From positions 62,001 to 126,000 of the forward strand of contig JBAIAA010000878.1 of NCBI GenBank assembly GCA_037893245.1: DNA of 64,000 bases. The letters run 5' to 3'. A program made the position numbers and the translations under genes. Below, piece by piece: positions 10,851-53,268 of this stretch (the first letter of the stretch is position 1; each line of letters opens with the position of its first letter). The DNA is from Crossaster papposus (taxonomy: Eukaryota > Echinodermata > Asteroidea > Velatida > Solasteridae). The notes beneath the pieces are model-generated. The model was not told where the DNA came from. It did no database searches and saw nothing but the letters and a program-made list of their open reading frames with translations.

Positions 10851-12060
10851 TATGTAGTAGTAGGGATATGCCGATTGTATACCAAATCTTAAATATGTAG
10901 TAGTAGGGATATGCCGATTGTAGACCAAATCTTAAATATGTAGTAGTAGGGATATGCCGATTGTAGACCAAATCTTAAATATGTAGTTGTAGGGATATGC
11001 CGATTGTAGACCAAATCTTAAATATGTAGTAGTAGGGATATGCCGATTGTAGACCAAATCTTAAATATGTAGTAGTAGGGATATGCCGATTGTAGACCAA
11101 ATATTAAATATGTAGTAGTAGGGATATGCCGATTGTAGACCAAATCTTAAATATGTAGTAGAAGGGATATGCCGATTGTAGACCAAATCTTAAATATGTA
11201 GTAGTAGGGATATGCCGATTGTAGACCAAATCTTAAATATGTAGTAGTAGGGATATGCCGATTGTAGACCAAATCTTAAATATGTAGTAGTAGGGATATG
11301 CCGATTGTAGACCAAATCTTAAATATGTAGTAGTAGGGATATGCCGATTGTAGACCAAATCTTAAATATGTAGTTGTAGGGATATGCCGATTGTAGACCA
11401 AATATTAAATATGTAGTAGTAGGGATATGCCGATTGCAGACCAAATCTTAAATATGTAGTAGTAGGGATATGCCGATTGTAGACCAAATATTAAATATGT
11501 AGTAGTAGGGATATGCCGATTGTAGACCAAATCTTAAATATGTAGTAGTAGGGATATGCCGATTGTAGACCAAATCTTAAAAAACTCAATTTGATCTGAT
11601 AACAAAACAAACTCACATTTATTATTATGTAAAGGGAAAGAAGTGTGCAGTAGAAATAAACACCTGATGTGGGAACAAGCCCTCGAGTTAAATATGTAAA
11701 GGGAAAGAAGTGTGCAGTAGAAATAAACACCTGATGTGGGAACAAGCCCTCGAGTTAAATATGTAGTAGTAGGGATATGCCGATTGTAGACCAAATCTTA
11801 AATATGTAGTAGTAGGGATATGCCGATTGTAGACCAAATCTTAAATATGTAGTAGAAGGGATATGCCGATTGTAGACCAAATCTTAAATATGTAGTAGTA
11901 GGGATATGCCGATTGTAGACCAAATCTTAAATATGTAGTAGTAGGGATATGCCGATTGTAGACCAAATCTTAAATATGTAGTAGTAGGGATATGCCGATT
12001 GTAGACCAAATCTTAAATATGTAGTTGTAGGGATATGCCGATTGTAGACCAAATCTTAAA

Positions 12061-12146
12061 TATGTAGTAGTAGGGATATGCCGATTGTAGACCAAATTTT
12101 TAATATGTAGTAGTTGGGTTATGCCGATTGTAGACCAAATCTTAAA
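12061..12146 (+). repeat. GGGTTATG monomer dimer 2
   Basis: First monomer ends ATTTTTAA, second contains TAGTTGGGTTATG. It sits 2,232 bp downstream of dimer 1 in matching surroundings (a TAGTTG monomer just upstream, TAGTATGG downstream), consistent with a segmental duplication. Confidence 0.9.
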
Positions 12147-12920
12147 TATGTAGTAGTAGGGATATGCCGATTGTAGACCAAATCTTAAATATGTAGTAGT
12201 ATGGATATGCCGATTGTAGACCAAATCTTAAATATGTAGTAGTAGGGATATGCCGATTGTAGACCAAATCTTAAATATGTAGTAGTAGGGATATGCCGAT
12301 TGTAGACCAAATCTTAAATATGTAGTAGTAGGGATATGCCGATTGTAGACCAAATCTTAAATATGTAGTAGTAGGGATATGCCGATTGTAGACCAAATCT
12401 TAAATATGTAGTAGTAGGGATATGCCGATTGTAGACCAAATCTTAAATATGTAGTAGTAGGGATATGCCGATTGTAGACCAAATCTTAAATATGTAGTAG
12501 TAGGGATATGCCGATTGTAGACCAAATCTTAAATATGTAGTAGTAGGGATATGCCGATTGTAGACCAAATCTTAAATATGTAGTTGTAGGGATATGCCGA
12601 TTGTAGACCAAATCTTAAATATGTAGTAGTAGGGATATGCCGATTGTAGACCAAATCTTAAATATGTAGTAGTAGGAATATGCCGATTGTAGACCAAATC
12701 TTAAATATGTAGTAGTAGGGATATGCCGATTGTAGACCAAATCTTAAATATGTAGTTGTAGGGATATGCCGATTGTAGACCAAATCTTAAATATGTAGTA
12801 GTAGGGATGTGCCGATTGTAGACCAAATCTTAAATATGTAGTAGTAGGGATATGCCGATTGTAGACCAAATATTAAATATGTAGTAGTAGGGATATGCCG
12901 ATTGTAGACCAAATCTTAAA

Positions 12921-12996
12921 AAAACTCAATTTGATCTGATAACAAAACAAACTCACATTTATTATTATGTAAAGGGAAAGAAGTGTGCAGTAGAAA
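12921..12996 (+). repeat. Truncated module 2
   Basis: Same break point as the copy at 10775, same 45-bp linker, and again followed by a TATACC monomer. It is a copy of the same event, not an independent deletion. Confidence 0.93.
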
Positions 12997-15029
12997 TATG
13001 TAGTAGTAGGGATATGCCGATTGTATACCAAATCTTAAATATGTAGTAGTAGGGATATGCCGATTGTAGACCAAATCTTAAATATGTAGTAGTAGGGATA
13101 TGCCGATTGTAGACCAAATCTTAAATATGTAGTTGTAGGGATATGCCGATTGTAGACCAAATCTTAAATATGTAGTAGTAGGGATATGCCGATTGTAGAC
13201 CAAATCTTAAATATGTAGTAGTAGGGATATGCCGATTGTAGACCAAATATTAAATATGTAGTAGTAGGGATATGCCGATTGTAGACCAAATCTTAAATAT
13301 GTAGTAGAAGGGATATGCCGATTGTAGACCAAATCTTAAATTTGTAGTAGTAGGGATATGCCGATTGTAGACCAAATCTTAAATATGTAGTAGTAGGGAT
13401 ATGCCGATTGTAGACCAAATCTTAAATATGTAGTAGTAGGGATATGCCGATTGTAGACCAAATCTTAAATATGTAGTAGTAGGGATATGCCGATTGTAGA
13501 CCAAATCTTAAATATGTAGTAGTAGGGATATGCCGATTGTAGACCAAATCTTAAATATGTAGTAGTAGGGATATGCCGATTGTAGACCAAATCTTAAATA
13601 TGTAGTAGTAGGGATATGCCGATTGTAGACCAAATCTTAAATATGTAGTTGTAGGGATATGCCGATTGTAGACCAAATATTAAATATGTAGTAGTAGGGA
13701 TATGCCGATTGTAGACCAAATCTTAAATATGTAGTAGTAGGGATATGCCGATTGTAGACCAAATATTAAATATGTAGTAGTAGGGATATGCCGATTGTAG
13801 ACCAAATCTTAAATATGTAGTAGTAGGGATATGCCGATTGTAGACCAAATCTTAAAAAACTCAATTTGATCTGATAACAAAACAAACTCACATTTATTAT
13901 TATGTAAAGGGAAAGAAGTGTGCAGTAGAAATAAACACCTGATGTGGGAACAAGCCCTCGAGTTAAATATGTAAAGGGAAAGAAGTGTGCAGTAGAAATA
14001 AACACCTGATGTGGGAACAAGCCCTCGAGTTAAATATGTAGTAGTAGGGATATGCCGATTGTAGACCAAATCTTAAATATGTAGTAGTAGGGATATGCCG
14101 ATTGTAGACCAAATCTTAAATATGTAGTAGAAGGGATATGCCGATTGAAGACCAAATCTTAAATATGTAGTAGTAGGGATATGCCGATTGTAGACCAAAT
14201 CTTAAATATGTAGTAGTAGGGATATGCCGATTGTAGACCAAATCTTAAATATGTAGTAGTAGGGATATGCCGATTGTAGACCAAATCTTAAATATGTAGT
14301 AGTAGGGATATGCCGATTGTAGACCAAATCTTAAATATGTAGTAGTAGGGATATGCCGATTGTAGACCAAATCTTAAATATGTAGTAGTAGGGATATGCC
14401 GATTGTAGACCAAATCTTAAATATGTAGTAGTAGGGATATGCCGATTGTAGACCAAATCTTAAATATGTAGTAGTAGGGATATGCCGATTGTAGACCAAA
14501 TCTTAAATATGTAGTTGTAGGGATATGCCGATTGTAGACCAAATCTTAAATATGTAGTAGTAGGGATATGCCGATTGTAGACCAAATCTTAAATATGTAG
14601 TAGTAGGAATATGCCGATTGTAGACCAAATCTTAAATATGTAGTAGTAGGGATATGCCGATTGTAGACCAAATCTTAAATATGTAGTTGTAGGGATATGC
14701 CGATTGTAGACCAAATCTTAAATATGTAGTAGTAGGGATGTGCCGATTGTAGACCAAATCTTAAATATGTAGTAGTAGGGATATGCCGATTGTAGACCAA
14801 ATCTTAAATATGTAGTAGTAGGGATATGCCGATTGTAGACCAAATCTTAAAAAACTCAATTTGATCTGATAACAAAACAAACTCACATTTATTATTATGT
14901 AAAGGGAAAGAAGTGTGCAGTAGAAATAAACACCTGATGTGGGAACAAGCCCTCGAGTTAAATATGTAAAGGGAAAGAAGTGTGCAGTAGAAATAAACAC
15001 CTGATGTGGGAACAAGCCCTCGAGTTAAA

Positions 15030-18000
15030 TATGTAGTAGTAGGGATATGCCGATTGTAGACCAAATCTTAAATATGTAGTAGTAGGGATATGCCGATTGT
15101 AGACCAAATCTTAAATATGTAGTAGAAGGGATATGCCGATTGTAGACCAAATCTTAAATATGTAGTAGTAGGGATATGCCGATTGTAGACCAAATCTTAA
15201 ATATGTAGTAGTAGGGATATGCCGATTGTAGACCAAATCTTAAATATGTAGTAGTAGGGATATGCCGATTGTAGACCAAATCTTAAATATGTAGTAGTAG
15301 GGATATGCCGATTGTAGACCAAATCTTAAATATGTAGTAGTAGGGATATGCCGATTGTAGACCAAATCTTAAATATGTAGTAGTAGGGATAAGCCGATTG
15401 TATACCAAATCTTAAATATGTAGTAGTAGGGATATGCCGATTGTAGACCAAATCTTAAATATGTAGTAGTAGGGATATGCCGATTGTAGACCAAATCTTA
15501 AATATGTAGTAGTAGGGATATGCCGATTGTAGACCAAATCTTAAATATGTAGTAGTAGGGATATGCCGATTGTAGACCAAATCTTAAATATGTAGTAGTA
15601 GGGATATGCCGATTGTAGACCAAATCTTAAATATGTAGTAGTAGGGATATGCCGATTGTAGACCAAATCTTAAATATGTAGTTGTAGGGATATGCCGATT
15701 GTAGACCAAATCTTAAATATGTAGTAGTAGGGATATGCCGATTGTAGACCAAATCTTAAATATGTAGCAGTAGGGATATGCCGATTGTAGACCAAATATT
15801 AAATATGTAGTAGTAGTGATATGCCGATTGTAGACCAAATCTTAAATATGTAGTAGTAGGGATATGCCGATTGTAGACCAAATCTTAAATATGTAGTAGT
15901 AGGGATATGCCGATTGTAGACCAAATCTTAAATATGTAGTAGTAGGGATATGCCGATTGTAGACCAAATCTTAAAAAACTCAATTTGATCTGATAACAAA
16001 ACAAACTCACATTTATTATTATGTAAAGGGAAAGAAGTGTGCAGTAGAAATAAACACCTGATGTGGGAACAAGCCCTCGAGTTAAATATGTAAAGGGAAA
16101 GAAGTGTGCAGTAGAAATAAACACCTGATGTGGGAACAAGCCATCGAGTTAAATATGTAGTAGTAGGGATATGCCGATTGTAGACCAAATCTTAAATATG
16201 TAGTAGTAGGGATATGCCGATTGTAGACCAAATCTTAAATATGTAGTAGAAGGGATATGCCGATTGTAGACCAAATCTTAAATATGTAGTAGTAGGGATA
16301 TGCCGATTGTAGACCAAATCTTAAATATGTAGTAGTAGGGATATGCCGATTGTAGACCAAATCTTAAAAAACTCAATTTGATCTGATAACAAAACAAACT
16401 CACATTTATTATTATGTAAAGGGAAAGAAGTGTGCAGTAGAAATAAACACCTGATGTGGGAACAAGCCCTCGAGTTAAATATGTAAAGGGAAAGAAGTGT
16501 GCAGTAGAAATAAACACCTGATGTGGGAACAAGCCCTCGAGTTAAATATGTAGTAGTAGGGATATGCCGATTGTAGACCAAATCTTAAATATGTAGTAGT
16601 AGGGATATGCCGATTGTAGACCAAATCTTAAATATGTAGTAGTAGGGATATGCCGATTGTAGACCAAATCTTAAATATGTAGTAGTAGGGATATGCCGAT
16701 TGTAGACCAAATCTTAAATATGTAGTAGTAGGGATATGCCGATTGTAGACCAAATCTTAAATATGTAGTAGTAGGGATATGCCGATTGTAGACCAAATCT
16801 TAAATATGTAGTAGTAGGGATATGCCGATTGTAGACCAAATCTTAAAAAAACTCAATTTGATCTGATAACAAAACAAACTCACATTTATTATTATGTAAA
16901 GGGAAAGAAGTGTGCAGTAGAAATATGTAGTAGTAGGGATATGCCGATTGTATACCAAATCTTAAATATGTAGTAGTAGGGATATGCCGATTGTAGACCA
17001 AATCTTAAATATGTAGTAGTAGGGATATGCCGATTGTAGACCAAATCTTAAATATGTAGTTGTAGGGATATGCCGATTGTAGACCAAATCTTAAATATGT
17101 AGTAGTAGGGATATGCCGATTGTAGACCAAATCTTAAATATGTAGTAGTAGGGATATGCCGATTGTAGACCAAATATTAAATATGTAGTAGTAGGGATAT
17201 GCCGATTGTAGACCAAATCTTAAATATGTAGTAGAAGGGATATGCCGATTGTAGACCAAATCTTAAATATGTAGTAGTAGGGATATGCCGATTGTAGACC
17301 AAATCTTAAATATGTAGTAGTAGGGATATGCCGATTGTAGACCAAATCTTAAATATGTAGTAGTAGGGATATGCCGATTGTAGACCAAATCTTAAATATG
17401 TAGTAGTAGGGATATGCCGATTGTAGACCAAATCTTAAATATGTAGTAGTAGGGATATGCCGATTGTAGACCAAATCTTAAATATGTAGTAGTAGGGATA
17501 TGCCGATTGTAGACCAAATCTTAAATATGTAGTAGTAGGGATATGCCGATTGTAGACCAAATCTTAAATATGTAGTTGTAGGGATATGCCGATTGTAGAC
17601 CAAATATTAAATATGTAGTAGTAGGGATATGCCGATTGTAGACCAAATCTTAAATATGTAGTAGTAGGGATATGCCGATTGTAGACCAAATATTAAATAT
17701 GTAGTAGTAGGGATATGCCGATTGTAGACCAAATCTTAAATATGTAGTAGTAGGGATATGCCGATTGTAGACCAAATCTTAAAAAACTCAATTTGATCTG
17801 ATAACAAAACAAACTCACATTTATTATTATGTAAAGGGAAAGAAGTGTGCAGTAGAAATAAACACCTGATGTGGGAACAAGCCCTCGAGTTAAATATGTA
17901 AAGGGAAAGAAGTGTGCAGTAGAAATAAACACCTGATGTGGGAACAAGCCCTCGAGTTAAATATGTAGTAGTAGGGATATGCCGATTGTAGACCAAATCT

Positions 18001-18956
18001 TAAATATGTAGTAGTAGGGATATGCCGATTGTAGACCAAATCTTAAATATGTAGTAGAAGGGATATGCCGATTGTAGACCAAATCTTAAATATGTAGTAG
18101 TAGGGATATGCCGATTGTAGACCAAATCTTAAATATGTAGTAGTAGGGATATGCCGATTGTAGACCAAATCTTAAATATGTAGTAGTAGGGATATGCCGA
18201 TTGTAGACCAAATCTTAAATATGTAGTAGTAGGGATATGCCGATTGTATACCAAATCTTAAATATGTAGTAGTAGGGATATGCCGATTGTAGACCAAATC
18301 TTAAATATGTAGTAGTAGGGATATGCCGATTGTAGACCAAATCTTAAATATGTAGCAGTAGGGATATGCCGATTGTAGACCAAATATTAAATATGTAGTA
18401 GTAGTGATATGCCGATTGTAGACCAAATCTTAAATATGTAGTAGTAGGGATATGCCGATTGTAGACCAAATCTTAAATATGTAGTAGTAGGGATATGCCG
18501 ATTGTAGACCAAATCTTAAATATGTAGTAGTAGGGATATGCCGATTGTAGACCAAATCTTAAAAAACTCAATTTGATCTGATAACAAAACAAACTCACAT
18601 TTATTATTATGTAAAGGGAAAGAAGTGTGCAGTAGAAATAAACACCTGATGTGGGAACAAGCCCTCGAGTTAAATATGTAAAGGGAAAGAAGTGTGCAGT
18701 AGAAATAAACACCTGATGTCGGAACAAGCCATCGAGTTAAATATGTAGTAGTAGGGATATGCCGATTGTAGACCAAATCTTAAATATGTAGTAGTAGGGA
18801 TATGCCGATTGTAGACCAAATCTTAAATATGTAGTAGAAGGGATATGCCGATTGTAGACCAAATCTTAAATATGTAGTAGTAGGGATATGCCGATTGTAG
18901 ACCAAATCTTAAATATGTAGTAGTAGGGATATGCCGATTGTAGACCAAATCTTAAA
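15030..18956 (+). repeat. Monomer array with modules, 15-19 kb
   Basis: Double modules at 15976-16153, 16369-16546, 17784-17961 and 18564-18741, plus the truncated module at 16848. The modules at 15976 and 18564 carry ATCGAG in place of CTCGAG in the second 67-bp unit, and each is followed five monomers later by a normal module. The second unit at 18675-18741 also has GATGTCGG. Confidence 0.9.
16848..16923 (+). repeat. Truncated module 3
   Basis: Identical break (GTAGAAA to TATGTAG), 45-bp linker, followed by a TATACC monomer. It lies seven monomers after the double module at 16369-16546. Confidence 0.93.
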
Positions 18957-20935
18957 AAACTCAATTTGATCTGATAACAAAACAAACTCACATTTATTAT
19001 TATGTAAAGGGAAAGAAGTGTGCAGTAGAAATAAACACCTGATGTGGGAACAAGCCCTCGAGTTAAATATGTAAAGGGAAAGAAGTGTGCAGTAGAAATA
19101 AACACCTGATGTGGGAACAAGCCCTCGAGTTAAATATGTAGTAGTAGGGATATGCCGATTGTAGACCAAATCTTAAATATGTAGTAGTAGGGATATGCCG
19201 ATTGTAGACCAAATCTTAAATATGTAGTAGTAGGGATATGCCGATTGTAGACCAAATCTTAAATATGTAGTAGTAGGGATATGCCGATTGTAGACCAAAT
19301 CTTAAATATGTAGTAGTAGGGATATGCCGATTGTAGACCAAATCTTAAATATGTAGTAGTAGGGATATGCCGATTGTAGACCAAATCTTAAATATGTAGT
19401 TGTAGGGATATGCCGATTGTAGACCAAATCTTAAATATGTAGTAGTAGGGATATGCCGATTGTAGACCAAATCTTAAATATGTAGTAGTAGGGATATGCC
19501 GATTGTAGACCAAATATTAAATATGTAGTAGTAGGGATATGCCGATTGTAGACCAAATCTTAAATATGTAGTAGTAGGGATATGCCGATTGTAGACCAAA
19601 TCTTAAAAAACTCAATTTGATCTGATAACAAAACAAACTCACATTTATTATTATGTAAAGGGAAAGAAGTGTGCAGTAGAAATAAACACCTGATGTGGGA
19701 ACAAGCCCTCGAGTTAAATATGTAAAGGGAAAGAAGTGTGCAGTAGAAATAAACACCTGATGTGGGAACAAGCCCTCGAGTTAAATATGTAGTAGTAGGG
19801 ATATGCCGATTGTAGACCAAATCTTAAATATGTAGTAGTAGGGATATGCCGATTGTAGACCAAATCTTAAATATGTAGTAGAAGGGATATGCCGATTGTA
19901 GACCAAATCTTAAATATGTAGTAGTAGGGATATGCCGATTGTAGACCAAATCTTAAATATGTAGTAGTAGGGATATGCCGATTGTAGACCAAATCTTAAA
20001 AAACTCAATTTGATCTGATAACAAAACAAACTCACATTTATTATTATGTAAAGGGAAAGAAGTGTGCAGTAGAAATATGTAGTAGTAGGGATATGCCGAT
20101 TGTATACCAAATCTTAAATATGTAGTAGTAGGGATATGCCGATTGTAGACCAAATCTTAAATATGTAGTAGTAGGGATATGCCGATTGTAGACCAAATCT
20201 TAAATATGTAGTTGTAGGGATATGCCGATTGTAGACCAAATCTTAAATATGTAGTAGTAGGGATATGCCGATTGTAGACCAAATCTTAAATATGTAGTAG
20301 TAGGGATATGCCGATTGTAGACCAAATATTAAATATGTAGTAGTAGGGATATGCCGATTGTAGACCAAATCTTAAATATGTAGTAGAGGGGATATGCCGA
20401 TTGTAGACCAAATCTTAAATATGTAGTAGTAGGGATATGCCGATTGTAGACCAAATCTTAAATATGTAGTAGTAGGGATATGCCGATTGTAGACCAAATC
20501 TTAAATATGTAGTAGTAGGGATATGCCGATTGTAGACCAAATCTTAAATATGTAGTAGTAGGGATATGCCGATTGTAGACCAAATCTTAAATATGTAGTA
20601 GTAGGGATATGCCGATTGTAGACCAAATCTTAAATATGTAGTAGTAGGGATATGCCGATTGTAGACCAAATCTTAAATATGTAGTAGTAGGGATATGCCG
20701 ATTGTAGACCAAATCTTAAATATGTAGTTGTAGGGATATGCCGATTGTAGACCAAATATTAAATATGTAGTAGTAGGGATATGCCGATTGTAGACCAAAT
20801 CTTAAATATGTAGTAGTAGGGATATGCCGATTGTAGACCAAATATTAAATATGTAGTAGTAGGGATATGCCGATTGTAGACCAAATCTTAAATATGTAGT
20901 AGTAGGGATATGCCGATTGTAGACCAAATCTTAAA
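18957..20935 (+). repeat. 1,979-bp higher-order repeat, copy 1
   Basis: Contains double modules at 18957-19134 and 19608-19785 and the truncated module at 20001-20075, with spacers of 11, 5 and 20 monomers. A private change (TAGAGGGG for TAGAAGGG near 20390) separates it from copy 2. Confidence 0.92.
20001..20075 (+). repeat. Truncated module 4
   Basis: Same break and TATACC neighbour, but the linker is the 44-bp form, distinguishing copies 4-6 from copies 1-3. It lies five monomers after the double module at 19608-19785. Confidence 0.93.
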
Positions 20936-22914
20936 AAACTCAATTTGATCTGATAACAAAACAAACTCACATTTATTATTATGTAAAGGGAAAGAAGTGT
21001 GCAGTAGAAATAAACACCTGATGTGGGAACAAGCCCTCGAGTTAAATATGTAAAGGGAAAGAAGTGTGCAGTAGAAATAAACACCTGATGTGGGAACAAG
21101 CCCTCGAGTTAAATATGTAGTAGTAGGGATATGCCGATTGTAGACCAAATCTTAAATATGTAGTAGTAGGGATATGCCGATTGTAGACCAAATCTTAAAT
21201 ATGTAGTAGAAGGGATATGCCGATTGTAGACCAAATCTTAAATATGTAGTAGTAGGGATATGCCGATTGTAGACCAAATCTTAAATATGTAGTAGTAGGG
21301 ATATGCCGATTGTAGACCAAATCTTAAATATGTAGTAGTAGGGATATGCCGATTGTAGACCAAATCTTAAATATGTAGTAGTAGGGATATGCCGATTGTA
21401 GACCAAATCTTAAATATGTAGTAGTAGGGATATGCCGATTGTAGACCAAATCTTAAATATGTAGTAGTAGGGATATGCCGATTGTAGACCAAATATTAAA
21501 TATGTAGTAGTAGGGATATGCCGATTGTAGACCAAATCTTAAATATGTAGTAGTAGGGATATGCCGATTGTAGACCAAATCTTAAAAAACTCAATTTGAT
21601 CTGATAACAAAACAAACTCACATTTATTATTATGTAAAGGGAAAGAAGTGTGCAGTAGAAATAAACACCTGATGTGGGAACAAGCCCTCGAGTTAAATAT
21701 GTAAAGGGAAAGAAGTGTGCAGTAGAAATAAACACCTGATGTGGGAACAAGCCCTCGAGTTAAATATGTAGTAGTAGGGATATGCCGATTGTAGACCAAA
21801 TCTTAAATATGTAGTAGTAGGGATATGCCGATTGTAGACCAAATCTTAAATATGTAGTAGAAGGGATATGCCGATTGTAGACCAAATCTTAAATATGTAG
21901 TAGTAGGGATATGCCGATTGTAGACCAAATCTTAAATATGTAGTAGTAGGGATATGCCGATTGTAGACCAAATCTTAAAAAACTCAATTTGATCTGATAA
22001 CAAAACAAACTCACATTTATTATTATGTAAAGGGAAAGAAGTGTGCAGTAGAAATATGTAGTAGTAGGGATATGCCGATTGTATACCAAATCTTAAATAT
22101 GTAGTAGTAGGGATATGCCGATTGTAGACCAAATCTTAAATATGTAGTAGTAGGGATATGCCGATTGTAGACCAAATCTTAAATATGTAGTTGTAGGGAT
22201 ATGCCGATTGTAGACCAAATCTTAAATATGTAGTAGTAGGGATATGCCGATTGTAGACCAAATCTTAAATATGTAGTAGTAGGGATATGCCGATTGTAGA
22301 CCAAATATTAAATATGTAGTAGTAGGGATATGCCGATTGTAGACCAAATCTTAAATATGTAGTAGAAGGGATATGCCGATTGTAGACCAAATCTTAAATA
22401 TGTAGTAGTAGGGATATGCCGATTGTAGACCAAATCTTAAATATGTAGTAGTAGGGATATGCCGATTGTAGACCAAATCTTAAATATGTAGTAGTAGGGA
22501 TATGCCGATTGTAGACCAAATCTTAAATATGTAGTAGTAGGGATATGCCGATTGTAGACCAAATCTTAAATATGTAGTAGTAGGGATATGCCGATTGTAG
22601 ACCAAATCTTAAATATGTAGTAGTAGGGATATGCCGATTGTAGACCAAATCTTAAATATGTAGTAGTAGGGATATGCCGATTGTAGACCAAATCTTAAAT
22701 ATGTAGTTGTAGGGATATGCCGATTGTAGACCAAATATTAAATATGTAGTAGTAGGGATATGCCGATTGTAGACCAAATCTTAAATATGTAGTAGTAGGG
22801 ATATGCCGATTGTAGACCAAATATTAAATATGTAGTAGTAGGGATATGCCGATTGTAGACCAAATCTTAAATATGTAGTAGTAGGGATATGCCGATTGTA
22901 GACCAAATCTTAAA
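20936..22914 (+). repeat. 1,979-bp higher-order repeat, copy 2
   Basis: Modules at 20936-21113, 21587-21764 and 21980-22054 reproduce copy 1 at a constant 1,979-bp offset, including the truncated module and its TATACC neighbour. Tandem arrangement indicates unequal exchange between sister arrays. Confidence 0.92.
21980..22054 (+). repeat. Truncated module 5
   Basis: Copy of the element at 20001, exactly 1,979 bp downstream, as part of the 1,979-bp higher-order repeat. Confidence 0.93.
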
Positions 22915-24431
22915 AAACTCAATTTGATCTGATAACAAAACAAACTCACATTTATTATTATGTAAAGGGAAAGAAGTGTGCAGTAGAAATAAACACCTGA
23001 TGTGGGAACAAGCCCTCGAGTTAAATATGTAAAGGGAAAGAAGTGTGCAGTAGAAATAAACACCTGATGTGGGAACAAGCCCTCGAGTTAAATATGTAGT
23101 AGTAGGGATATGCCGATTGTAGACCAAATCTTAAATATGTAGTAGTAGGGATATGCCGATTGTAGACCAAATCTTAAATATGTAGTAGAAGGGATATGCC
23201 GATTGTAGACCAAATCTTAAATATGTAGTAGTAGGGATATGCCGATTGTAGACCAAATCTTAAATATGTAGTAGTAGGGATATGCCGATTGTAGACCAAA
23301 TCTTAAATATGTAGTAGTAGGGATATGCCGATTGTAGACCAAATCTTAAATATGTAGTAGTAGGGATATGCCGATTGTAGACCAAATCTTAAATATGTAG
23401 TAGTAGGGATATGCCGATTGTAGACCAAATCTTAAATATGTAGTAGTAGGGATATGCCGATTGTATACCAAATCTTAAATATGTAGTAGTAGGGATATGC
23501 CGATTGTAGACCAAATCTTAAATATGTAGTAGTAGGGATATGCCGATTGTAGACCAAATCTTAAATATGTAGTAGTAGGGATATGCCGATTGTAGACCAA
23601 ATCTTAAATATGTAGTAGTAGGGATATGCCGATTGTAGACCAAATCTTAAATATGTAGTAGTAGGGATATGCCGATTGTAGACCAAATCTTAAATATGTA
23701 GTAGTAGGGATATGCCGATTGTAGACCAAATCTTAAATATGTAGTTGTAGGGATATGCCGATTGTAGACCAAATCTTAAATATGTAGTAGTAGGGATATG
23801 CCGATTGTAGACCAAATCTTAAATATGTAGCAGTAGGGATATGCCGATTGTAGACCAAATATTAAATATGTAGTAGTAGTGATATGCCGATTGTAGACCA
23901 AATCTTAAATATGTAGTAGTAGGGATATGCCGATTGTAGACCAAATCTTAAATATGTAGTAGTAGGGATATGCCGATTGTAGACCAAATCTTAAATATGT
24001 AGTAGTAGGGATATGCCGATTGTAGACCAAATCTTAAAAAACTCAATTTGATCTGATAACAAAACAAACTCACATTTATTATTATGTAAAGGGAAAGAAG
24101 TGTGCAGTAGAAATAAACACCTGATGTGGGAACAAGCCCTCGAGTTAAATATGTAAAGGGAAAGAAGTGTGCAGTAGAAATAAACACCTGATGTGGGAAC
24201 AAGCCATCGAGTTAAATATGTAGTAGTAGGGATATGCCGATTGTAGACCAAATCTTAAATATGTAGTAGTAGGGATATGCCGATTGTAGACCAAATCTTA
24301 AATATGTAGTAGAAGGGATATGCCGATTGTAGACCAAATCTTAAATATGTAGTAGTAGGGATATGCCGATTGTAGACCAAATCTTAAATATGTAGTAGTA
24401 GGGATATGCCGATTGTAGACCAAATCTTAAA
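22915..24431 (+). repeat. Spacer block between 1,979-bp repeat copies
   Basis: Double modules at 22915-23092 and 24039-24216, 22 monomers apart. The second is an ATCGAG module. The long spacer has TATACC near 23465, TAGCAGTAG near 23830 and TAGTAGTGAT near 23877. The last two recur near 15769, 18356 and 27284 upstream of other ATCGAG modules, so they mark this cassette. Confidence 0.88.
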
Positions 24432-42600: not shown

Positions 42601-43407
42601 TATGCCGATTGTAGACCAAATCTTAAATATGTAGTAGTAGGGATATGCCGATTGTAGACCAAATCTTAAATATGTAGTAGTAGGGATATGCCGATTGTAG
42701 ACCAAATCTTAAATATGTAGTAGTAGGGATATGCCGATTGTAGACCAAATCTTAAATATGTAGTTGTAGGGATATGCCGATTGTAGACCAAATCTTAAAT
42801 ATGTAGTAGTAGGGATATGCCGATTGTAGACCAAATCTTAAATATGTAGTAGTAGGGATATGCCGATTGTAGACCAAATATTAAATATGTAGTAGTAGGG
42901 ATATGCCGATTGTAGACCAAATCTTAAATATGTAGTAGTAGGGATATGCCGATTGTAGACCAAATCTTAAAAAACTCAATTTGATCTGATAACAAAACAA
43001 ACTCACATTTATTATTATGTAAAGGGAAAGAAGTGTGCAGTAGAAATAAACACCTGATGTGGGAACAAGCCCTCGAGTTAAATATGTAAAGGGAAAGAAG
43101 TGTGCAGTAGAAATAAACACCTGATGTGGGAACAAGCCCTCGAGTTAAATATGTAGTAGTAGGGATATGCCGATTGTAGACCAAATCTTAAATATGTAGT
43201 AGTAGGGATATGCCGATTGTAGACCAAATCTTAAATATGTAGTAGAAGGGATATGCCGATTGTAGACCAAATCTTAAATATGTAGTAGTAGGGATATGCC
43301 GATTGTAGACCAAATCTTAAATATGTAGTAGTAGGGATATGCCGATTGTAGACCAAATCTTAAATATGTAGTAGTAGTGATATGCCGATTGTAGACCAAA
43401 TCTTAAA

Positions 43408-43447
43408 TATGTAGTAGGGATATGCCGATTGTAGACCAAATCTTAAA
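43408..43447 (+). repeat. 40-bp monomer lacking one TAG (copy 1)
   Basis: Two TAG triplets instead of three, a slip of one triplet. An identical short monomer at 48387-48426, exactly 4,979 bp away, shows that the slip preceded the duplication. Confidence 0.92.
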
Positions 43448-43662
43448 TATGTAGTTGTAGGGATATGCCGATTGTAGACCAAATCTTAAATATGTAGTAG
43501 TAGGGATATGCCGATTGTAGACCAAATCTTAAATATGTAGTAGTAGGGATATGCCGATTGTAGACCAAATATTAAATATGTAGTAGTAGGGATATGCCGA
43601 TTGTAGACCAAATCTTAAATATGTAGTAGTAGGGATATGCCGATTGTAGACCAAATCTTAAA

Positions 43663-43773
43663 AAACTCAATTTGATCTGATAACAAAACAAACTCACATT
43701 TATTATTATGTAAAGGGAAAGAAGTGTGCAGTAGAAATAAACACCTGATGTGGGAACAAGCCCTCGAGTTAAA
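43663..43773 (+). repeat. Single-unit module in 4,979-bp copy 1
   Basis: Linker plus one 67-bp unit, preceded by a spacer with the 40-bp monomer at 43408-43447. Its partner is at 48642. Confidence 0.93.
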
Positions 43774-44504
43774 TATGTAGTAGTAGGGATATGCCGATTG
43801 TAGACCAAATCTTAAATATGTAGTAGTAGGGATATGCCGATTGTAGACCAAATCTTAAATATGTAGTAGAAGGGATATGCCGATTGTAGACCAAATCTTA
43901 AATATGTAGTAGTAGGGATATGCCGATTGTAGACCAAATCTTAAATATGTAGTAGTAGGGATATGCCGATTGTAGACCAAATCTTAAATATGTAGTAGTA
44001 GGGATATGCCGATTGTATACCAAATCTTAAATATGTAGTAGTAGGGATATGCCGATTGTAGACCAAATCTTAAATATGTAGTAGTAGGGATATGCCGATT
44101 GTAGACCAAATCTTAAATATGTAGTAGTAGGGATATGCCGATTGTAGACCAAATCTTAAATATGTAGTAGTAGGGATATGCCGATTGTAGACCAAATCTT
44201 AAATATGTAGTAGTAGGGATATGCCGATTGTAGACCAAATCTTAAATATGTAGTAGTAGGGATATGCCGATTGTAGACCAAATCTTAAATATGTAATAGT
44301 AGGGATATGCCGATTGTAGACCAAATCTTAAATATGTAGTAGTAGGGATATGCCGATTGTAGACCAAATCTTAAATATGTAGTAGTAGGGATATGCCGAT
44401 TGTAGACCAAATATTAAATATGTAGTAGTAGGGATATGCCGATTGTAGACCAAATCTTAAATATGTAGTAGTAGGGATATGCCGATTGTAGACCAAATCT
44501 TAAA

Positions 44505-44615
44505 AAACTCAATTTGATCTGATAACAAAACAAACTCACATTTATTATTATGTAAAGGGAAAGAAGTGTGCAGTAGAAATAAACACCTGATGTGGGAACA
44601 AGCCCTCGAGTTAAA
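44505..44615 (+). repeat. Single-unit module at the end of 4,979-bp copy 1
   Basis: The equivalent module one period upstream, at 39459-39636, is double. The surroundings match at 4,979 bp only when measured from the module's right end, so exactly one 67-bp unit differs. Confidence 0.93.
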
Positions 44616-47600
44616 TATGTAGTAGTAGGGATATGCCGATTGTAGACCAAATCTTAAATATGTAGTAGTAGGGATATGCCGATTGTAGACCAAATCTTAA
44701 ATATGTAGTAGAAGGGATATGCCGATTGTAGACCAAATCTTAAATATGTAGTAGTAGGGATATGCCGATTGTAGACCACATCTTAAATATGTAGTAGTAG
44801 GGATATGCCGATTGTAGACCAAATCTTAAATATGTAGTAGTAGGGATATGCCGATTGTAGACCAAATCTTAAATATGTAGTAGTAGGGATATGCCGATTG
44901 TAGACCAAATCTTAAATATGTAGTAGTAGGGATATGCCGATTGTATACCAAATCTTAAATATGTAGTAGTAGGGATATGCCGATTGTAGACCAAATCTTA
45001 AATATGTAGTAGTAGGGATATGCCGATTGTAGACCAAATCTTAAATATGTAGTAGTAGGGATATGCCGATTGTAGACCAAATCTTAAATATGTAGTAGTA
45101 GGGATATGCCGATTGTAGACCAAATCTTAAATATGTAGTAGTAGGGATATGCCGATTGTAGACCAAATCTTAAATATGTAGTAGTAGGGATATGCCGATT
45201 GTAGACCAAATCTTAAATATGTAGTTGTAGGGATATGCCGATTGTAGACCAAATCTTAAATATGTAGTAGTAGGGATATGCCGATTGTAGACCAACTCTT
45301 AAATATGTAGTAGTAGGGATATGCCGATTGTAGACCAAATATTAAATATGTAGTAGTAGGGATATGCCGATTGTAGACCAAATCTTAAATATGTAGTAGT
45401 AGGGATATGCCGATTGTAGACCAAATCTTAAAAAACTCAATTTGATCTGATAACAAAACAAACTCACATTTATTATTATGTAAAGGGAAAGAAGTGTGCA
45501 GTAGAAATAAACACCTGATGTGGGAACAAGCCCTCGAGTTAAATATTTAAAGGGAAAGAAGTGTGCAGTAGAAATAAACACCTGATGTGGGAACAAGCCC
45601 TCGAGTTAAATATGTAGTAGTAGGGATATGCCGATTGTAGACCAAATCTTAAATATGTATTAGTAGGGATATGCCGATTGTAGACCAAATCTTAAATATG
45701 TAGTAGAAGGGATATGCCGATTGTAGACCAAATCTTAAATATGTAGTAGTAGGGATATGCCGATTGTAGACCAAATCTTAAATATGTAGTAGTAGGGATA
45801 TGCCGATTGTAGACCAAATCTTAAAAAACTCAATTTGATCTGATAACAAAACAAACTCACATTTATTATTATGTAAAGGGAAAGAAGTGTGCAGTAGAAA
45901 TAAACACCTGATGTGGGAACAAGCCCTCGAGTTAAATATGTAAAGGGAAAGAAGTGTGCAGTAGAAATAAACACCTGATGTGGGAACAAGCCCTCGAGTT
46001 AAATATGTAGTAGTAGGGATATGCCGATTGTAGACCAAATCTTAAATATGTAGTAGTAGGGATATGCCGATTGTAGACCAAATCTTAAATATGTAGTAGA
46101 AGGGATATGCCGATTGTAGACCAAATCTTAAATATGTAGTAGTAGGGATATGCCGATTGTAGACCAAATCTTAAATATGTAGTAGTAGGGATATGCCGAT
46201 TGTAGACCAAATCTTAAATATGTAGTAGTAGGGATATGCCGATTGTAGACCAAATCTTAAATATGTAGTAGTAGGGATATGCCGATTGTAGACCAAATCT
46301 TAAATATGTAGTAGTAGGGATATGCCGATTGTATACCAAATCTTAAATATGTAGTAGTAGGGATATGCCGATTGTAGACCAAATCTTAAATATGTAGTAG
46401 TAGGGATATGCCGATTGTAGACCAAATCTTAAATATGTAGTAGTAGGGATATGCCGATTGTAGACCAAATCTTAAATATGTAGTAGTAGGGATATGCCGA
46501 TTGTAGACCAAATCTTAAATATGTAGTTGTAGGGATATGCCGATTGTAGACCAAATCTTAAATATGTAGTAGTAGGGATATGCCGATTGTAGACCAAATC
46601 TTAAATATGTAGTAGTAGGGATATGCCGATTGTAGACCAAATCTTAAAAAACTCAATTTGATCTGATAACAAAACAAACTCACATTTATTATTATGTAAA
46701 GGGAAAGAAGTGTGCAGTAGAAATAAACACCTGATGTGGGAACAAGCCCTCGAGTTAAATATGTAAAGGGAAAGAAGTGTGCAGTAGAAATAAACACCTG
46801 ATGTGGGAACAAGCCCTCGAGTTAAATATGTAGTAGTAGGGATATGCCGATTGTAGACCAAATCTTAAATATGTATTAGTAGGGATATGCCGATTGTAGA
46901 CCAAATCTTAAATATGTAGTAGAAGGGATATGCCGATTGTAGACCAAATCTTAAATATGTAGTAGTAGGGATATGCCGATTGTAGACCAAATCTTAAATA
47001 TGTAGTAGTAGGGATATGCCGATTGTAGACCAAATCTTAAAAAACTCAATTTGATCTGATAACAAAACAAACTCACATTTATTATTATGTAAAGGGAAAG
47101 AAGTGTGCAGTAGAAATAAACACCTGATGTGGGAACAAGCCCTCGAGTTAAATATGTAAAGGGAAAGAAGTGTGCAGTAGAAATAAACACCTGATGTGGG
47201 AACAAGCCCTCGAGTTAAATATGTAGTAGTAGGGATATGCCGATTGTAGACCAAATCTTAAATATGTAGTAGTAGGGATATGCCGATTGTAGACCAAATC
47301 TTAAATATGTAGTAGAAGGGATATGCCGATTGTAGACCAAATCTTAAATATGTAGTAGTAGGGATATGCCGATTGTAGACCAAATCTTAAATATGTAGTA
47401 GTAGGGATATGCCGATTGTAGACCAAATCTTAAATATGTAGTAGTAGGGATATGCCGATTGTAGACCAAATCTTAAATATGTAGTAGTAGGGATATGCCG
47501 ATTGTAGACCAAATCTTAAATATGTAGTAGTAGGGATATGCCGATTGTATACCAAATCTTAAATATGTAGTAGTAGGGATATGCCGATTGTAGACCAAAT

Positions 47601-48386
47601 CTTAAATATGTAGTAGTAGGGATATGCCGATTGTAGACCAAATCTTAAATATGTAGTAGTAGGGATATGCCGATTGTAGACCAAATCTTAAATATGTAGT
47701 AGTAGGGATATGCCGATTGTAGACCAAATCTTAAATATGTAGTTGTAGGGATATGCCGATTGTAGACCAAATCTTAAATATGTAGTAGTAGGGATATGCC
47801 GATTGTAGACCAAATCTTAAATATGTAGTAGTAGGGATATGCCGATTGTAGACCAAATATTAAATATGTAGTAGTAGGGATATGCCGATTGTAGACCAAA
47901 TCTTAAATATGTAGTAGTAGGGATATGACGATTGTAGACCAAATCTTAAAAAACTCAATTTGATCTGATAACAAAACAAACTCACATTTATTATTATGTA
48001 AAGGGAAAGAAGTGTGCAGTAGAAATAAACACCTGATGTGGGAACAAGCCCTCGAGTTAAATATGTAAAGGGAAAGAAGTGTGCAGTAGAAATAAACACC
48101 TGATGTGGGAACAAGCCCTCGAGTTAAATATGTAGTAGTAGGGATATGCCGATTGTAGACCAAATCTTAAATATGTAGTAGTAGGGATATGCCGATTGTA
48201 GACCAAATCTTAAATATGTAGTAGAAGGGATATGCCGATTGTAGACCAAATCTTAAATATGTAGTAGTAGGGATATGCCGATTGTAGACCAAATCTTAAA
48301 TATGTAGTAGTAGGGATATGCCGATTGTAGACCAAATCTTAAATATGTAGTAGTAGGGATATGCCGATTGTAGACCAAATCTTAAA

Positions 48387-48426
48387 TATGTAGTAGGGAT
48401 ATGCCGATTGTAGACCAAATCTTAAA
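48387..48426 (+). repeat. 40-bp monomer lacking one TAG (copy 2)
   Basis: Sister of the short monomer at 43408 in the duplicated 4,979-bp block. Confidence 0.92.
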
Positions 48427-48641
48427 TATGTAGTTGTAGGGATATGCCGATTGTAGACCAAATCTTAAATATGTAGTAGTAGGGATATGCCGATTGTAGA
48501 CCAAATCTTAAATATGTAGTAGTAGGGATATGCCGATTGTAGACCAAATATTAAATATGTAGTAGTAGGGATATGCCGATTGTAGACCAAATCTTAAATA
48601 TGTAGTAGTAGGGATATGCCGATTGTAGACCAAATCTTAAA

Positions 48642-48752
48642 AAACTCAATTTGATCTGATAACAAAACAAACTCACATTTATTATTATGTAAAGGGAAAG
48701 AAGTGTGCAGTAGAAATAAACACCTGATGTGGGAACAAGCCCTCGAGTTAAA
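48642..48752 (+). repeat. Single-unit module in 4,979-bp copy 2
   Basis: Partner of the module at 43663, preserved with the 40-bp monomer at 48387-48426. Confidence 0.93.
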
Positions 48753-49483
48753 TATGTAGTAGTAGGGATATGCCGATTGTAGACCAAATCTTAAATATGT
48801 AGTAGTAGGGATATGCCGATTGTAGACCAAATCTTAAATATGTAGTAGAAGGGATATGCCGATTGTAGACCAAATCTTAAATATGTAGTAGTAGGGATAT
48901 GCCGATTGTAGACCAAATCTTAAATATGTAGTAGTAGGGATATGCCGATTGTAGACCAAATCTTAAATATGTAGTAGTAGGGATATGCCGATTGTATACC
49001 AAATCTTAAATATGTAGTAGTAGGGATATGCCGATTGTAGACCAAATCTTAAATATGTAGTAGTAGGGATATGCCGATTGTAGACCAAATCTTAAATATG
49101 TAGTAGTAGGGATATGCCGATTGTAGACCAAATCTTAAATATGTAGTAGTAGGGATATGCCGATTGTAGACCAAATCTTAAATATGTAGTAGTAGGGATA
49201 TGCCGATTGTAGACCAAATCTTAAATATGTAGTAGTAGGGATATGCCGATTGTAGACCAAATCTTAAATATGTAGTAGTAGGGATATGCCGATTGTAGAC
49301 CAAATCTTAAATATGTAGTAGTAGGGATATGCCGATTGTAGACCAAATCTTAAATATGTAGTAGTAGGGATATGCCGATTGTAGACCAAATATTAAATAT
49401 GTATTAGTAGGGATATGCCGATTGTAGACCAAATCTTAAATATGTAGTAGTAGGGATATGCCGATTGTAGACCAAATCTTAAA

Positions 49484-49594
49484 AAACTCAATTTGATCTG
49501 ATAACAAAACAAACTCACATTTATTATTATGTAAAGGGAAAGAAGTGTGCAGTAGAAATAAACACCTGATGTGGGAACAAGCCCTCGAGTTAAA
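49484..49594 (+). repeat. Single-unit module at the end of 4,979-bp copy 2
   Basis: Partner of the module at 44505. The first downstream monomer has GACGAAATC (near 49626), a private change. Confidence 0.93.
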
Positions 49595-50239
49595 TATGTA
49601 GTAGTAGGGATATGCCGATTGTAGACGAAATCTTAAATATGTAGTAGTAGGGATATGCCGATTGTAGACCAAATCTTAAATATGTAGTAGAAGGGATATG
49701 CCGATTGTAGACCAAATCTTAAATATGTAGTAGTAGGGATATGCCGATTGTAGACCAAATCTTAAATATGTAGTAGTAGGGATATGCCGATTGTAGACCA
49801 AATCTTAAATATGTAGTAGTAGGGATATGCCGATTGTAGACCAAATCTTAAATATGTAGTAGTAGGGATATGCCGATTGTAGACCAAATCTTAAATATGT
49901 AGTAGTAGGGATATGCCGATTGTATACCAAATCTTAAATATGTAGTAGTAGGGATATGCCGATTGTAGACCAAATCTTAAATATGTAGTAGTAGGGATAT
50001 GCCGATTGTAGACCAAATCTTAAATATGTAGTTGTAGGGATATGCCGATTGTAGACCAAATCTTAAATATGTAGTAGTAGGGATATGCCGATTGTAGACC
50101 AAATCTTAAATATGTAGTAGTAGGGATATGCCGATTGTAGACCAAATATTAAATATGTAGTAGTAGGGATATGCCGATTGTAGACCAAATCTTAAATATG
50201 TAGTAGTAGGGATATGCCGATTGTAGACCAAATCTTAAA

Positions 50240-50390
50240 AAACTCACATTTATTATTATGTAAAGGGAAAGAAGTGTGCAGTAGAAATAAACACCTGATG
50301 TGGGAACAAGCCCTCGAGTTAAATATGTAAAGGGAAAGAAGTGTGCAGTAGAAATAAACACCTGATGTGGGAACAAGCCCTCGAGTTAAA
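50240..50390 (+). repeat. Double module with a 27-bp linker deletion
   Basis: The linker is 17 bp (50240-50256) instead of 44. The missing 27 bases run from one AAACTCA to the next within the normal linker, leaving one copy of AAACTCA. The two 67-bp units (50257-50323, 50324-50390) are intact. This is the only such linker in the window. Confidence 0.94.
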
Positions 50391-50952
50391 TATGTAGTAG
50401 TAGTAGGGATATGCCGATTGTAGACCAAATCTTAAATATGTAGTAGTAGGGATATGGCGATTGTAGACCAAATCTTAAATATGTAGTAGAAGGGATATGC
50501 CGATTGTAGACCAAATCTTAAATATGTAGTAGTAGGGATATGCCGATTGTAGACCAAATCTGAAATATGTAGTAGTAGGGATATGCCGATTGTAGACCAA
50601 ATCTTAAATATGTAGTAGTAGGGATATGCCGATTGTAGACCAAATCTTAAATATGTAGTAGTAGGGATATGCCGATTGTAGACCAAATCTTAAATATGTA
50701 GTAGTAGGGATATGCCGATTGTAGACCAAATCTTAAATATGTAGTAGTAGGGATATGCCGATTGTAGACCAAATCTTAAATATGTAGTTGTAGGGATATG
50801 CCGATTGTAGACCAAATCTTAAATATGTAGTAGTAGGGATATGCCGATTGTAGACCAAATCTTAAATATGTAGTAGTAGGGATATGCCGATTGTAGACCA
50901 AATCTTAAATATATAGTAGTAGGGATATGCCGATTGTAGACCAAATCTTAAA

Positions 50953-51038
50953 TATGTAGTAGTAGGGATATGCCGATTGTAGACAAAATTTTTAATATGT
51001 AGTAGTTGGGTTATGCCGATTGTAGACCAAATCTTAAA
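50953..51038 (+). repeat. GGGTTATG monomer dimer 3
   Basis: First monomer has AGACAAAATTTTTAA at its end, second has TAGTTGGGTTATG. It combines the dimer change with an extra CC-to-CA change not seen at 12061. Confidence 0.9.
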
Positions 51039-51597
51039 TATGTAGTAGTAGGGATATGCCGATTGTAGACCAAATCTTAAATATGTAGTAGTAGGGATAT
51101 GCCGATTGTAGACCAAATCTTAAATATGTAGTAGTAGGGATATGCCGATTGTAGACCAAATCTTAAATATGTAGTAGTAGGGATATGCCGATTGTAGACC
51201 AAATCTTAAATATGTAGTAGTAGGGATATGCCGATTGTAGACCAAATCTTAAATATGTAGTAGTATGGATATGCCGATTGTAGACCAAATCTTAAATATG
51301 TAGTAGTAGGGATATGCCGATTGTAGACCAAATCTTAAATATGTAGTAGTAGGGATATGCCGATTGTATACCAAATCTTAAATATGTAGTAGTAGGGATA
51401 TGCCGATTGTAGACCAAATCTTAAATATGTAGTAGTAGGGATATGCCGATTGTAGACCAAATCTTAAATATGTAGTAGTAGGGATATGCCGATTGTAGAC
51501 CAAATCTTAAATATGTAGTAGTAGGGATATGCCGATTGTAGACCAAATCTTAAATATGTAGTAGTAGGGATATGCCGATTGTAGACCAAATCTTAAA

Positions 51598-51708
51598 AAA
51601 CTCAATTTGATCTGATAACAAAACAAACTCACATTTATTATTATGTAAAGGGAAAGAAGTGTGCAGTAGAAATAAACACCTGATGTGGGAACAAGCCCTC
51701 GAGTTAAA
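51598..51708 (+). repeat. Single-unit module followed by a 46-bp monomer
   Basis: Linker plus one 67-bp unit. The next monomer (51709-51754) has four TAG triplets. Confidence 0.93.
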
Positions 51709-52313
51709 TATGTAGTAGTAGTAGGGATATGCCGATTGTAGACCAAATCTTAAATATGTAGTAGTAGGGATATGGCGATTGTAGACCAAATCTTAAATAT
51801 GTAGTAGAAGGGATATGCCGATTGTAGACCAAATCTTAAATATGTAGTAGTAGGGATATGCCGATTGTAGACCAAATCTTAAATATGTAGTAGTAGGGAT
51901 ATGCCGATTGTAGACCAAATCTTAAATATGTAGTAGTAGGGATATGCCGATTGTAGACCAAATCTTAAATATGTAGTAGTATGGATATGCCGATTGTAGA
52001 CCAAATCTTAAATATGTAGTAGTAGGGATATGCCGAGTGTATACCAAATCTTAAATATGTAGTAGTAGGGATATGCCGATTGTAGACCAAATCTTAAATA
52101 TGTAGTAGTAGGGATATGCCGATTGTAGACCAAATCTTAAATATGTAGTAGTAGGGATATGCCGATTGTAGACCAAATCTTAAATATGTAGTAGTAGGGA
52201 TATGCCGATTGTAGACCAAATGTTAAATATGTAGTAGTAGGGATATGCCGATTGTAGACAAAATCTTAAATATATAGTAGTAGGGATATGCCGATTGTAG
52301 ACCAAATCTTAAA

Positions 52314-52399
52314 TATGTAGTAGTAGGGATATGCCGATTGTAGACAAAATTTTTAATATGTAGTAGTTGGGTTATGCCGATTGTAGACCAAATCTTAAA
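52314..52399 (+). repeat. GGGTTATG monomer dimer 4
   Basis: Same changes as the dimer at 50953, preceded two monomers earlier by TATATAGTAG (near 52271), which also occurs two monomers before the 50953 dimer (near 50911). Confidence 0.9.
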
Positions 52400-53268
52400 T
52401 ATGTAGTAGTAGGGATATGCCGATTGTAGACCAAATCTTAAATATGTAGTAGTAGGGATATGCCGATTGTAGACCAAATCTTAAAAAACTCAATTTGATC
52501 TGATAACAAAACAAACTCACATTTATTATTATGTAAAGGGAAAGAAGTGTGCAGTAGAAATAAACACCTGATGTGGGAACAAGCCCTCGAGTTAAATATG
52601 TAAAGGGAAAGAAGTGTGCAGTAGAAATAAACACCTGATGTGGGAACAAGCCCTCGAGTTAAATATGTAGTAGTAGTAGGGATATGCCGATTGTAGACCA
52701 AATCTTAAATATGTAGTAGTAGGGATATGCCGATTGTAGACCAAATCTTAAATATGTAGTAGAAGGGATATGCCGATTGTAGACCAAATCTTAAATATGT
52801 AGTAGTAGGGATATGCCGATTGTAGACCAAATCTTAAATATGTAGTAGTAGGGATATGCCGATTGTAGACCAAATCTTAAATATGTAGTAGTAGGTATAT
52901 GCCGATTGTAGACCAAATCTTAAATATGTAGTAGTAGGGATATGCCGATTGTAGACCAAATCTTAAATATGTAGTAGTGGGGATATGCCGATTGTAGACC
53001 AAATCTTAAATATGTAGTAGTAGGGATATGCCGATTGTAGACCAAATCTTAAATATGTAGTAGTATGGATATGCCGATTGTAGACCAAATCTTAAATATG
53101 TAGTAGTAGGGATATGCCGATTGTAGACCAAATCTTAAATATGTAGTAGTAGGGATATGCCGATTGTAGACCAAATCTTAAATATGTAGTAGTAGGGATA
53201 TGCCGATTGTAGACCAAATCTTAAATATGTAGTAGTAGGGATATGCCGATTGTAGACCAAATCTTAAA

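What the first reader, a model, noticed from the sequence alone, without database searches (positions are those of the whole stretch)
11582..52663. Position-locked monomer variants flank the modules
In the central array specific variants occur at fixed monomer distances from modules: TAGTTG at -5 (19393 and 42757), ATATTAAA at -3 (19479-19521, 26282-26324, 42843-42885), TAGAAGG at +3 (16238 region, 44702) and TATACC at +8 (35580, 39938, 41326, 42542, 44917). Most other monomers are canonical. This means module plus flanks have been copied as a block and not that modules jump into random monomers. It also gives a coordinate system for reading rearrangements.
Basis: seen in the sequence. Interest (0 to 1): 0.7.

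Follow-up and report, generated by a model that had tools for sequence, protein, structure and literature searches.

The report
Block-copied satellite array with landmarks
A long stretch of simple repeated DNA in an echinoderm-like genome carries small spelling differences at fixed distances from larger inserted pieces, a sign that the array grew by copying whole multi-repeat blocks side by side; this is a clear case of a known process, not a new kind of system.

Summary
The window, and the 200,075-bp contig it lies in, is one head-to-tail 43-bp satellite broken by a composite module (H 44 bp plus mostly 1-3 copies of U 67 bp, usually 178 bp). In the central 41 kb (58 intervals, 733 monomers) T11A sits at +3 in 41 intervals, C38A at -3 in 29, A9T at -5 in 22 and G30T at +8 in 10; 1000 shuffles within intervals never exceeded 13, 9, 8 and 6. 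The locks survive collapsing identical intervals. One correction: nothing shows the module to be the organiser. Variants are locked to each other at least as tightly (A9T, then C38A two monomers on, 33 of 40), 11 of these 33 pairs lack a module at the expected place, and a module-blind duplication simulation gives such locks. Other parts of the contig carry other local codes. This is irregular, nested higher-order-repeat structure, a known kind, in a satellite whose description I did not find.

The parts
1..64000 (+). 43-bp satellite array with composite modules; part of a 200,075-bp contig that is satellite end to end, in one orientation
   Evidence: 1175 monomer tokens (836 canonical), 81 H, 145 U, 7 truncated pieces; the monomer core word occurs 3063 times forward and 0 times reversed in the contig
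11582..52663 (+). central domain in which T11A@+3, G30T@+8, A9T@-5 and C38A@-3 are locked to modules
   Evidence: table and shuffles
19608..19785 (+). example of the standard 178-bp module H(44)+U(67)+U(67)
19393..19435 (+). A9T monomer at -5 of the module at 19608
19479..19521 (+). C38A monomer at -3 of the module at 19608
19872..19914 (+). T11A monomer at +3 of the module at 19608
   Evidence: interval 19786-20000
35580..35622 (+). G30T monomer at +8 of its upstream module
39570..50239 (+). two tandem copies of a 4,979-bp block (tract 39570-45260 against 44549-50239, 11 mismatches in 5,691 bp, 7 modules in the tract)
28101..34400 (+). two tandem copies of a 3,040-bp block (3 mismatches in 3,260 bp, 5 modules)
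18751..23565 (+). tandem block of 1,979 bp (8 mismatches in 2,836 bp, 4 modules)
39804..42879 (+). tandem block of 1,216 bp (8 mismatches in 1,860 bp), nested in the 4,979-bp block; the same nested pair recurs 4,979 bp downstream at 44783-47858
20001..20075 (+). truncated module HT (75 bp): the rest of the U part is missing, with the 5-bp direct repeat AAATA at the join; six copies in the window (also 10776, 12922, 16849, 21980, 25476), all followed by G30T at +1, A9T at +4, C38A at +6, T11A at +8
   Evidence: the repeat at the join is my reading of the printed joins
50240..50390 (+). module with a shortened H (27 bp missing between two AAACTCA words) followed by two U
   Evidence: the repeat is my reading

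Best explanation
The region is an irregular, nested higher-order-repeat (HOR) satellite. Point variants arose in single monomers, and later exchanges (unequal crossing over between misaligned sister or homologous arrays, or an equivalent homology-driven tandem duplication) copied segments of about 0.6-5 kb side by side, with modules, variant monomers and canonical monomers together. Fixed distances between variants and modules are the trace of these shared blocks. Where long runs of identical canonical monomers lie between two markers, later small exchanges change the run length, so the lock loosens with distance (tight at +3, partial at +8). The module behaves as one more marker in the copied string. 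Shown: the locks, the tandem near-identical blocks, the nesting of the 1,216-bp pair in both 4,979-bp copies, the local domains. Inferred: that the nested pair is the older event, unequal exchange as the physical mechanism, and an early origin of the module.
For: Locks far beyond shuffles and after de-duplication. Tandem tracts longer than their lag: 4,979 bp (0.19% mismatch), 3,040 (0.09%), 1,979 (0.28%), 1,216 twice (0.43%); 26 of 30, 12 of 13, 8 of 12 and 5 of 9 variant monomers are identical in the second copy. Random central 43-bp monomers differ by 1.37% and adjacent ones by 1.44% (726 of the 733), so neighbours are less alike than the same position one block away. The 1,216-bp pair is present in both 4,979-bp copies at the same offset, with the same tract length and number of mismatches. 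Variants lock to each other: A9T to C38A at +2 33 of 40, 11 of the 33 without a module at +5. Module-flank likeness (Jaccard) is 0.11-0.12 within 6 kb and 0.01-0.02 beyond 25 kb. In 15 of 16 bins of the contig at least one variant or length form is locked to modules (13 of 16 without the join length forms L44 and L42). Module-blind simulation: 128 of 139 common variants locked; random insertion: 25 of 181. Module joins keep one phase: the commonest form makes 129 of 287 M|H joins and 227 of 284 U|M joins.
Against: The simulation was conditioned on module survival (30 of 4,116 seeds kept) and shows sufficiency only. Eight of the twelve lags examined give tracts shorter than the lag (tract/lag 0.15-0.93), so further deletions, gene conversion or non-adjacent copying must be added. 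Tract ends depend on the mismatch tolerance (lag 1,216: 1,860 bp with 8 mismatches,301 bp with 1). Junctions cannot be placed within runs of identical monomers. The assembly was not checked against reads.
Confidence: 0.9

Rival explanations
1. The module is a mobile unit that inserts repeatedly into the array, each time at the same point of the 43-bp monomer.
For: Modules sit in one phase; both M and U end in TTAAA and begin with TATGTA, so the module is bounded by a short repeated word.
Against: Flanking monomer variants are shared at fixed distances up to 8 monomers away; random insertion into a simulated HOR array locks 25 of 181 common variants, mean best lock fraction 0.09 against 0.68 for block copying and 0.89 in the central domain. 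I did not search the module for transposon proteins or terminal repeats beyond reading its ends.
Confidence: 0.03
2. The module is itself the engine: exchange or replication restart starts preferentially in the module, and module plus flanks are amplified because of it.
For: Module length itself varies: 171 HUU, 92 HU, 18 HUUU, 6 HT, 2 UUU and 1 TUU among 290 modules of the contig.
Against: The stretch that must hold the junction of a tandem duplication touches a module in 5 of 22 tracts against 10.5 (sd 2.2) for random placement. The measure is biased against modules, because a module only counts if both partners carry one at the same offset, and the 22 tracts are not all independent (some nest or are copies of one another). 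Variant pairs are locked without a module at the expected place (11 of 33).
Confidence: 0.06
3. Assembly artefact: repeats collapsed or duplicated by the assembler give false block copies.
For: The contig is satellite to both ends, so the assembler broke off inside the array.
Against: Block copies carry private differences (11, 3, 8 and 8 mismatches); locally repeated flank codes appear along 200 kb and in 10 kb of another contig (C10).
Confidence: 0.04

Closest known systems
Alpha-satellite higher-order repeats of primate centromeres
   Same: Blocks of several monomers are amplified together, so that block copies are more alike than the monomers within a block (statement read in passages of PMC8122249); local domains of recently copied sequence resemble the evolutionary layers described in PMC11062924 (passages).
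   Different: Here monomers are 43 bp and nearly identical, the block has no fixed length, blocks are nested, and unrelated H and U pieces are part of the blocks.
PIVE-40, 43-bp satellite of pistachio (PMC4669136, passages)
   Same: 43-bp monomer, proposed HOR organisation.
   Different: A plant; dimeric HOR inferred from 454 reads; AT content 60.5% against 65.1% here. The consensus was not available to me; the two printed primers match M, H and U at no more than 10 of 18-19 bases.
Duplicated ATHILA insertions inside Arabidopsis CEN180 arrays (recalled; my search gave one paper, seen as a listing only)
   Same: A foreign sequence in a satellite array is multiplied together with its flanking monomers after arrival.
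   Different: The module here is 178 bp, contains a 67-bp repeat sharing its ends with the monomer, and its origin is unknown.

Membership tests
Higher-order-repeat (HOR) satellite array | Head-to-tail tandem monomers | tested here: met
   3580 monomer tokens in the 200,075-bp contig, one orientation
Higher-order-repeat (HOR) satellite array | Multi-monomer blocks repeated with higher identity between block copies than between monomers within a block | tested here: met
   0.09-0.43% between tandem block copies against 1.37-1.44% between monomers
Higher-order-repeat (HOR) satellite array | Block copies adjacent in tandem | tested here: met
   tract/lag 1.07-1.53 for lags 1216, 1979, 3040, 4979 (4 of 12 lags examined); 22 tracts with tract/lag between 1 and 2 along the contig
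Higher-order-repeat (HOR) satellite array | A regular block of fixed length repeated many times | tested here: not met
   block lengths differ (608-4,979 bp) and are nested; so it is described as irregular HOR structure, not filed as a classical fixed-length HOR
Centromeric satellite | Bound by CENH3/CENP-A chromatin | not testable with these tools
   needs ChIP or CUT&RUN
Transposable element (module) | Independent insertion sites with unrelated flanks | tested here: not met
   flanks are shared at fixed distances
Transposable element (module) | Coding sequence or terminal repeats of a known class | not tested
   only an ORF listing of the window (3 ORFs of at least 100 aa) and reading of the ends

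The most novel reading that the evidence does not exclude
The H-U module is a functional landmark (for example a protein-binding or replication-stalling element) whose presence makes its surroundings prone to block amplification, so that the array expands as module-carrying blocks and the flank codes are a log of module-driven events.
Probability: 0.06. Interest if true: 0.6.

Novelty: new member of a known kind. Interest (0 to 1): 0.3.

Why it matters
Because monomers are nearly identical but carry sparse markers and unmistakable modules, nested duplications can be read from one sequence. That makes the array a clean test bed for models of satellite growth (size of blocks, homology at junctions, reach of homogenisation of about 10-25 kb). 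In the open-access library the searches for echinoderm satellites listed no paper on such an array.

Tried and rejected
Rfam on the window gave 0 matches. A DNA similarity search of the own genome found nothing because common words are skipped; exact patterns worked instead. An 18S search gave no usable answer; 5S and COX1 were searched instead. A first regular-expression parse caught almost only exact monomers (842 of its 843 hits) and a first Viterbi parse crashed on an integer overflow; both were replaced. Shuffling whole units still leaves module-holding exact repeats of 616-734 bp in 5 shuffles, so single exact matches of about that length were not used as evidence. Random canonical monomers as landmarks reach a best lock of 15 at most (58 landmarks, 500 draws). 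The Jaccard control with random canonical monomers (0.02-0.03 within 12 kb) is not a matched control, since such landmarks are not homologous; the A9T/C38A landmark test was used for that.

Papers: PMC4669136, PMC8122249, PMC11062924 and PMC10153287 were seen as found passages only; all others only as search listings. That I found no description of this satellite rests in an open-access library; none of these searches by sequence.
Full report
What is there. The window is positions 62001-126000 of contig C878 (200,075 bp) of a 1.02-Gb assembly with 1841 contigs. Both contig ends lie inside the satellite. A dynamic-programming parse against the 43-bp monomer M and the pieces H (44 bp) and U (67 bp) assigns the whole window to 1175 M, 81 H, 145 U and 7 truncated pieces. 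836 of 1175 monomers are identical to TATGTAGTAGTAGGGATATGCCGATTGTAGACCAAATCTTAAA. The usual module is H-U-U, 178 bp. In their common forms M and U share the first six bases TATGTA and the last five TTAAA, so the joins M|M, U|U and U|M carry the same 11-base word TTAAATATGTA, found 3606 times in the contig; H begins differently. The monomer core word occurs 3063 times forward and never reversed in the contig.

The observation. The requested table was made for 58 intervals and 733 monomers between 11582 and 52663: T11A at +3 in 41 intervals, C38A at -3 in 29, A9T at -5 in 22, G30T at +8 in 10. Shuffling monomers within each interval 1000 times gave maxima of 13, 9, 8 and 6. Identical intervals could inflate this, so they were collapsed to 38 distinct ones: 27, 22, 16 and 8. 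T11A also counts 17 times at -3; many intervals are five monomers long, where +3 is also -3. G30T is locked least: 10 of 24 at +8, the rest at +1 (five, after the truncated module HT), +6, +7, +9, +11 or farther.

Block copies. Self-comparison finds 40 exact matches of at least 700 bp that hold a module. Twelve of their lags were extended with mismatches allowed. Four give tracts longer than the lag, as expected of true tandem duplications: lag 4,979 bp, 5,691 bp long, 11 mismatches; lag 3,040, 3,260 bp, 3 mismatches; lag 1,979, 2,836 bp, 8; lag 1,216, 1,860 bp, 8, found twice exactly 4,979 bp apart. Since the 1,216-bp pair is present in both 4,979-bp copies, it reads as the older event. Variant monomers agree between copies in 26 of 30, 12 of 13, 8 of 12 and 5 of 9 cases (lags 4,979, 3,040, 1,979, 1,216). 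Random monomers of this domain differ by 1.37%, adjacent ones by 1.44%. The other eight lags (3,453 to 11,516) give tracts shorter than the lag (tract/lag 0.15-0.93), which requires later deletions, conversion or non-adjacent copying.

Is the module special? The same lock test with other landmarks gives no sign of it: from A9T, C38A stands two monomers on in 33 of 40 cases, tighter than A9T to module (22 of 40). In 11 of these 33 the module is not at the expected +5. A scan of 2,669 lags given by pairs of modules kept 22 tracts in the contig with tract/lag between 1 and 2, at least one whole module and under 0.8% mismatch. In these the stretch of homology in which the junction must lie is 11-642 bp and touches a module in 5; random placement gives 10.5, sd 2.2. 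This measure is biased against modules, because a module counts only if both partners have one at the same offset, and the tracts are not all independent (the 1,216-bp pair counts twice), so I take it only as no support for a module-centred process. A simulation of about 1500 units with random tandem duplications and deletions blind to the module, at a similar share of variant monomers (0.28), locked 128 of 139 common variants to modules in 30 runs kept of 4,116 seeds (kept if 40-160 modules survived; 29 of the 30 runs had a lock); 80 modules put at random into such arrays locked 25 of 181 in 30 runs (15 of which had at least one). The real central domain has 4 of 4, the contig 14 of 18.

How far it reaches. 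In 12.5-kb bins along the contig, 15 of 16 have at least one variant or length form locked to modules beyond 300 shuffles and with at least 4 cases. Some of these are only L44 or L42 at -1, length forms at the M|H join; without L44 and L42, 13 of 16 bins remain. With many variant-position pairs tried, some weak ones will be chance: even random insertion passes for 25 of 181 common variants in the simulation. The codes differ from place to place, for example C21A@+3 with T1A/G30A@+6 right of the window and T3G@+1 left of it; in 10 kb of contig C10 five intervals carry A36C at +3 followed by A43C at +4 (read by eye, no shuffle made). Likeness of module flanks is 0.11-0.12 within 6 kb, 0.085 at 6-12 kb, 0.04 at 12-25 kb and about 0.01-0.02 beyond (286 of 290 modules with an informative flank). 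So the coordinate system is local, with a reach of roughly 10-25 kb.

Small deletions. Six modules are cut to HT (75 bp); the join is explained by a deletion across the direct repeat AAATA (my reading of the joins). All six are followed by G30T at +1, A9T at +4, C38A at +6 and T11A at +8, so it looks like one event copied. One module (50240) lacks 27 bp of H between two AAACTCA words.

Mechanism. In-register blocks, junction homology of tens to hundreds of bases and tandem placement fit unequal homologous exchange; rolling-circle reinsertion or replication-based tandem duplication would leave similar traces and are not excluded. [quoted passage not shown] The present array fits that picture, without a fixed block length.

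Source. The mitochondrion-like contig C1841 (16,330 bp) carries COX1 with 13 TGA inside; its translation under the echinoderm/flatworm code, with AAA as Asn and ATA as Ile, looks to me more like ordinary COX1 than under the invertebrate code (by eye, no alignment). Pfam names the other frames nad2 and nad1 on the minus strand upstream of cox1, and cox2, atp6, cox3, nad4, nad5 and cob on the plus strand. Inverted nad1/nad2 is what I recall for sea stars and brittle stars; no call tests it. Genome-wide there are 378,407 exact copies of a 40-base monomer word and 51,260 of a 36-base U word, so at least 16 Mb (1.6%) of the assembly is this satellite.

Verdict. Observation confirmed, inference supported with the correction that modules act as markers and are not shown to be the cause. 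It is an ordinary process shown in an unusually readable array.

Noticed in passing
G000:C8, 5208663-5210009 and 2872001-2873343: Contig C8 (longer than 5.2 Mb) holds COX1 matches in frames without inner stops, unlike the mitochondrial copy; it may belong to a bacterial associate or contaminant (not tested).
   Followed up: no
L018 (G000:C10:25001-35000): Another contig of the same satellite is much richer in modules (24 H in 10 kb, several intervals of a single monomer) and seems to have its own repeated flank codes.
   Followed up: partly
L001, contig C878 positions 2664-4484: A U-U-U run without H follows a 33-base cut monomer (2 cases), a second way in which U joins M.
   Followed up: no
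G000, whole assembly: 47 scored 5S rRNA matches, all over the cut-off, many of them spaced about 217-219 bp in clusters on several contigs.
   Followed up: no
window 9829-9914, 12061-12146, 50953-51038, 52314-52399, 53269-53354, 53656-53741, 54430-54515, 55572-55657: All 8 monomers with A12T/A16T directly follow a monomer with C38T and A41T: a locked neighbour pair at varying distances from modules.
   Followed up: partly
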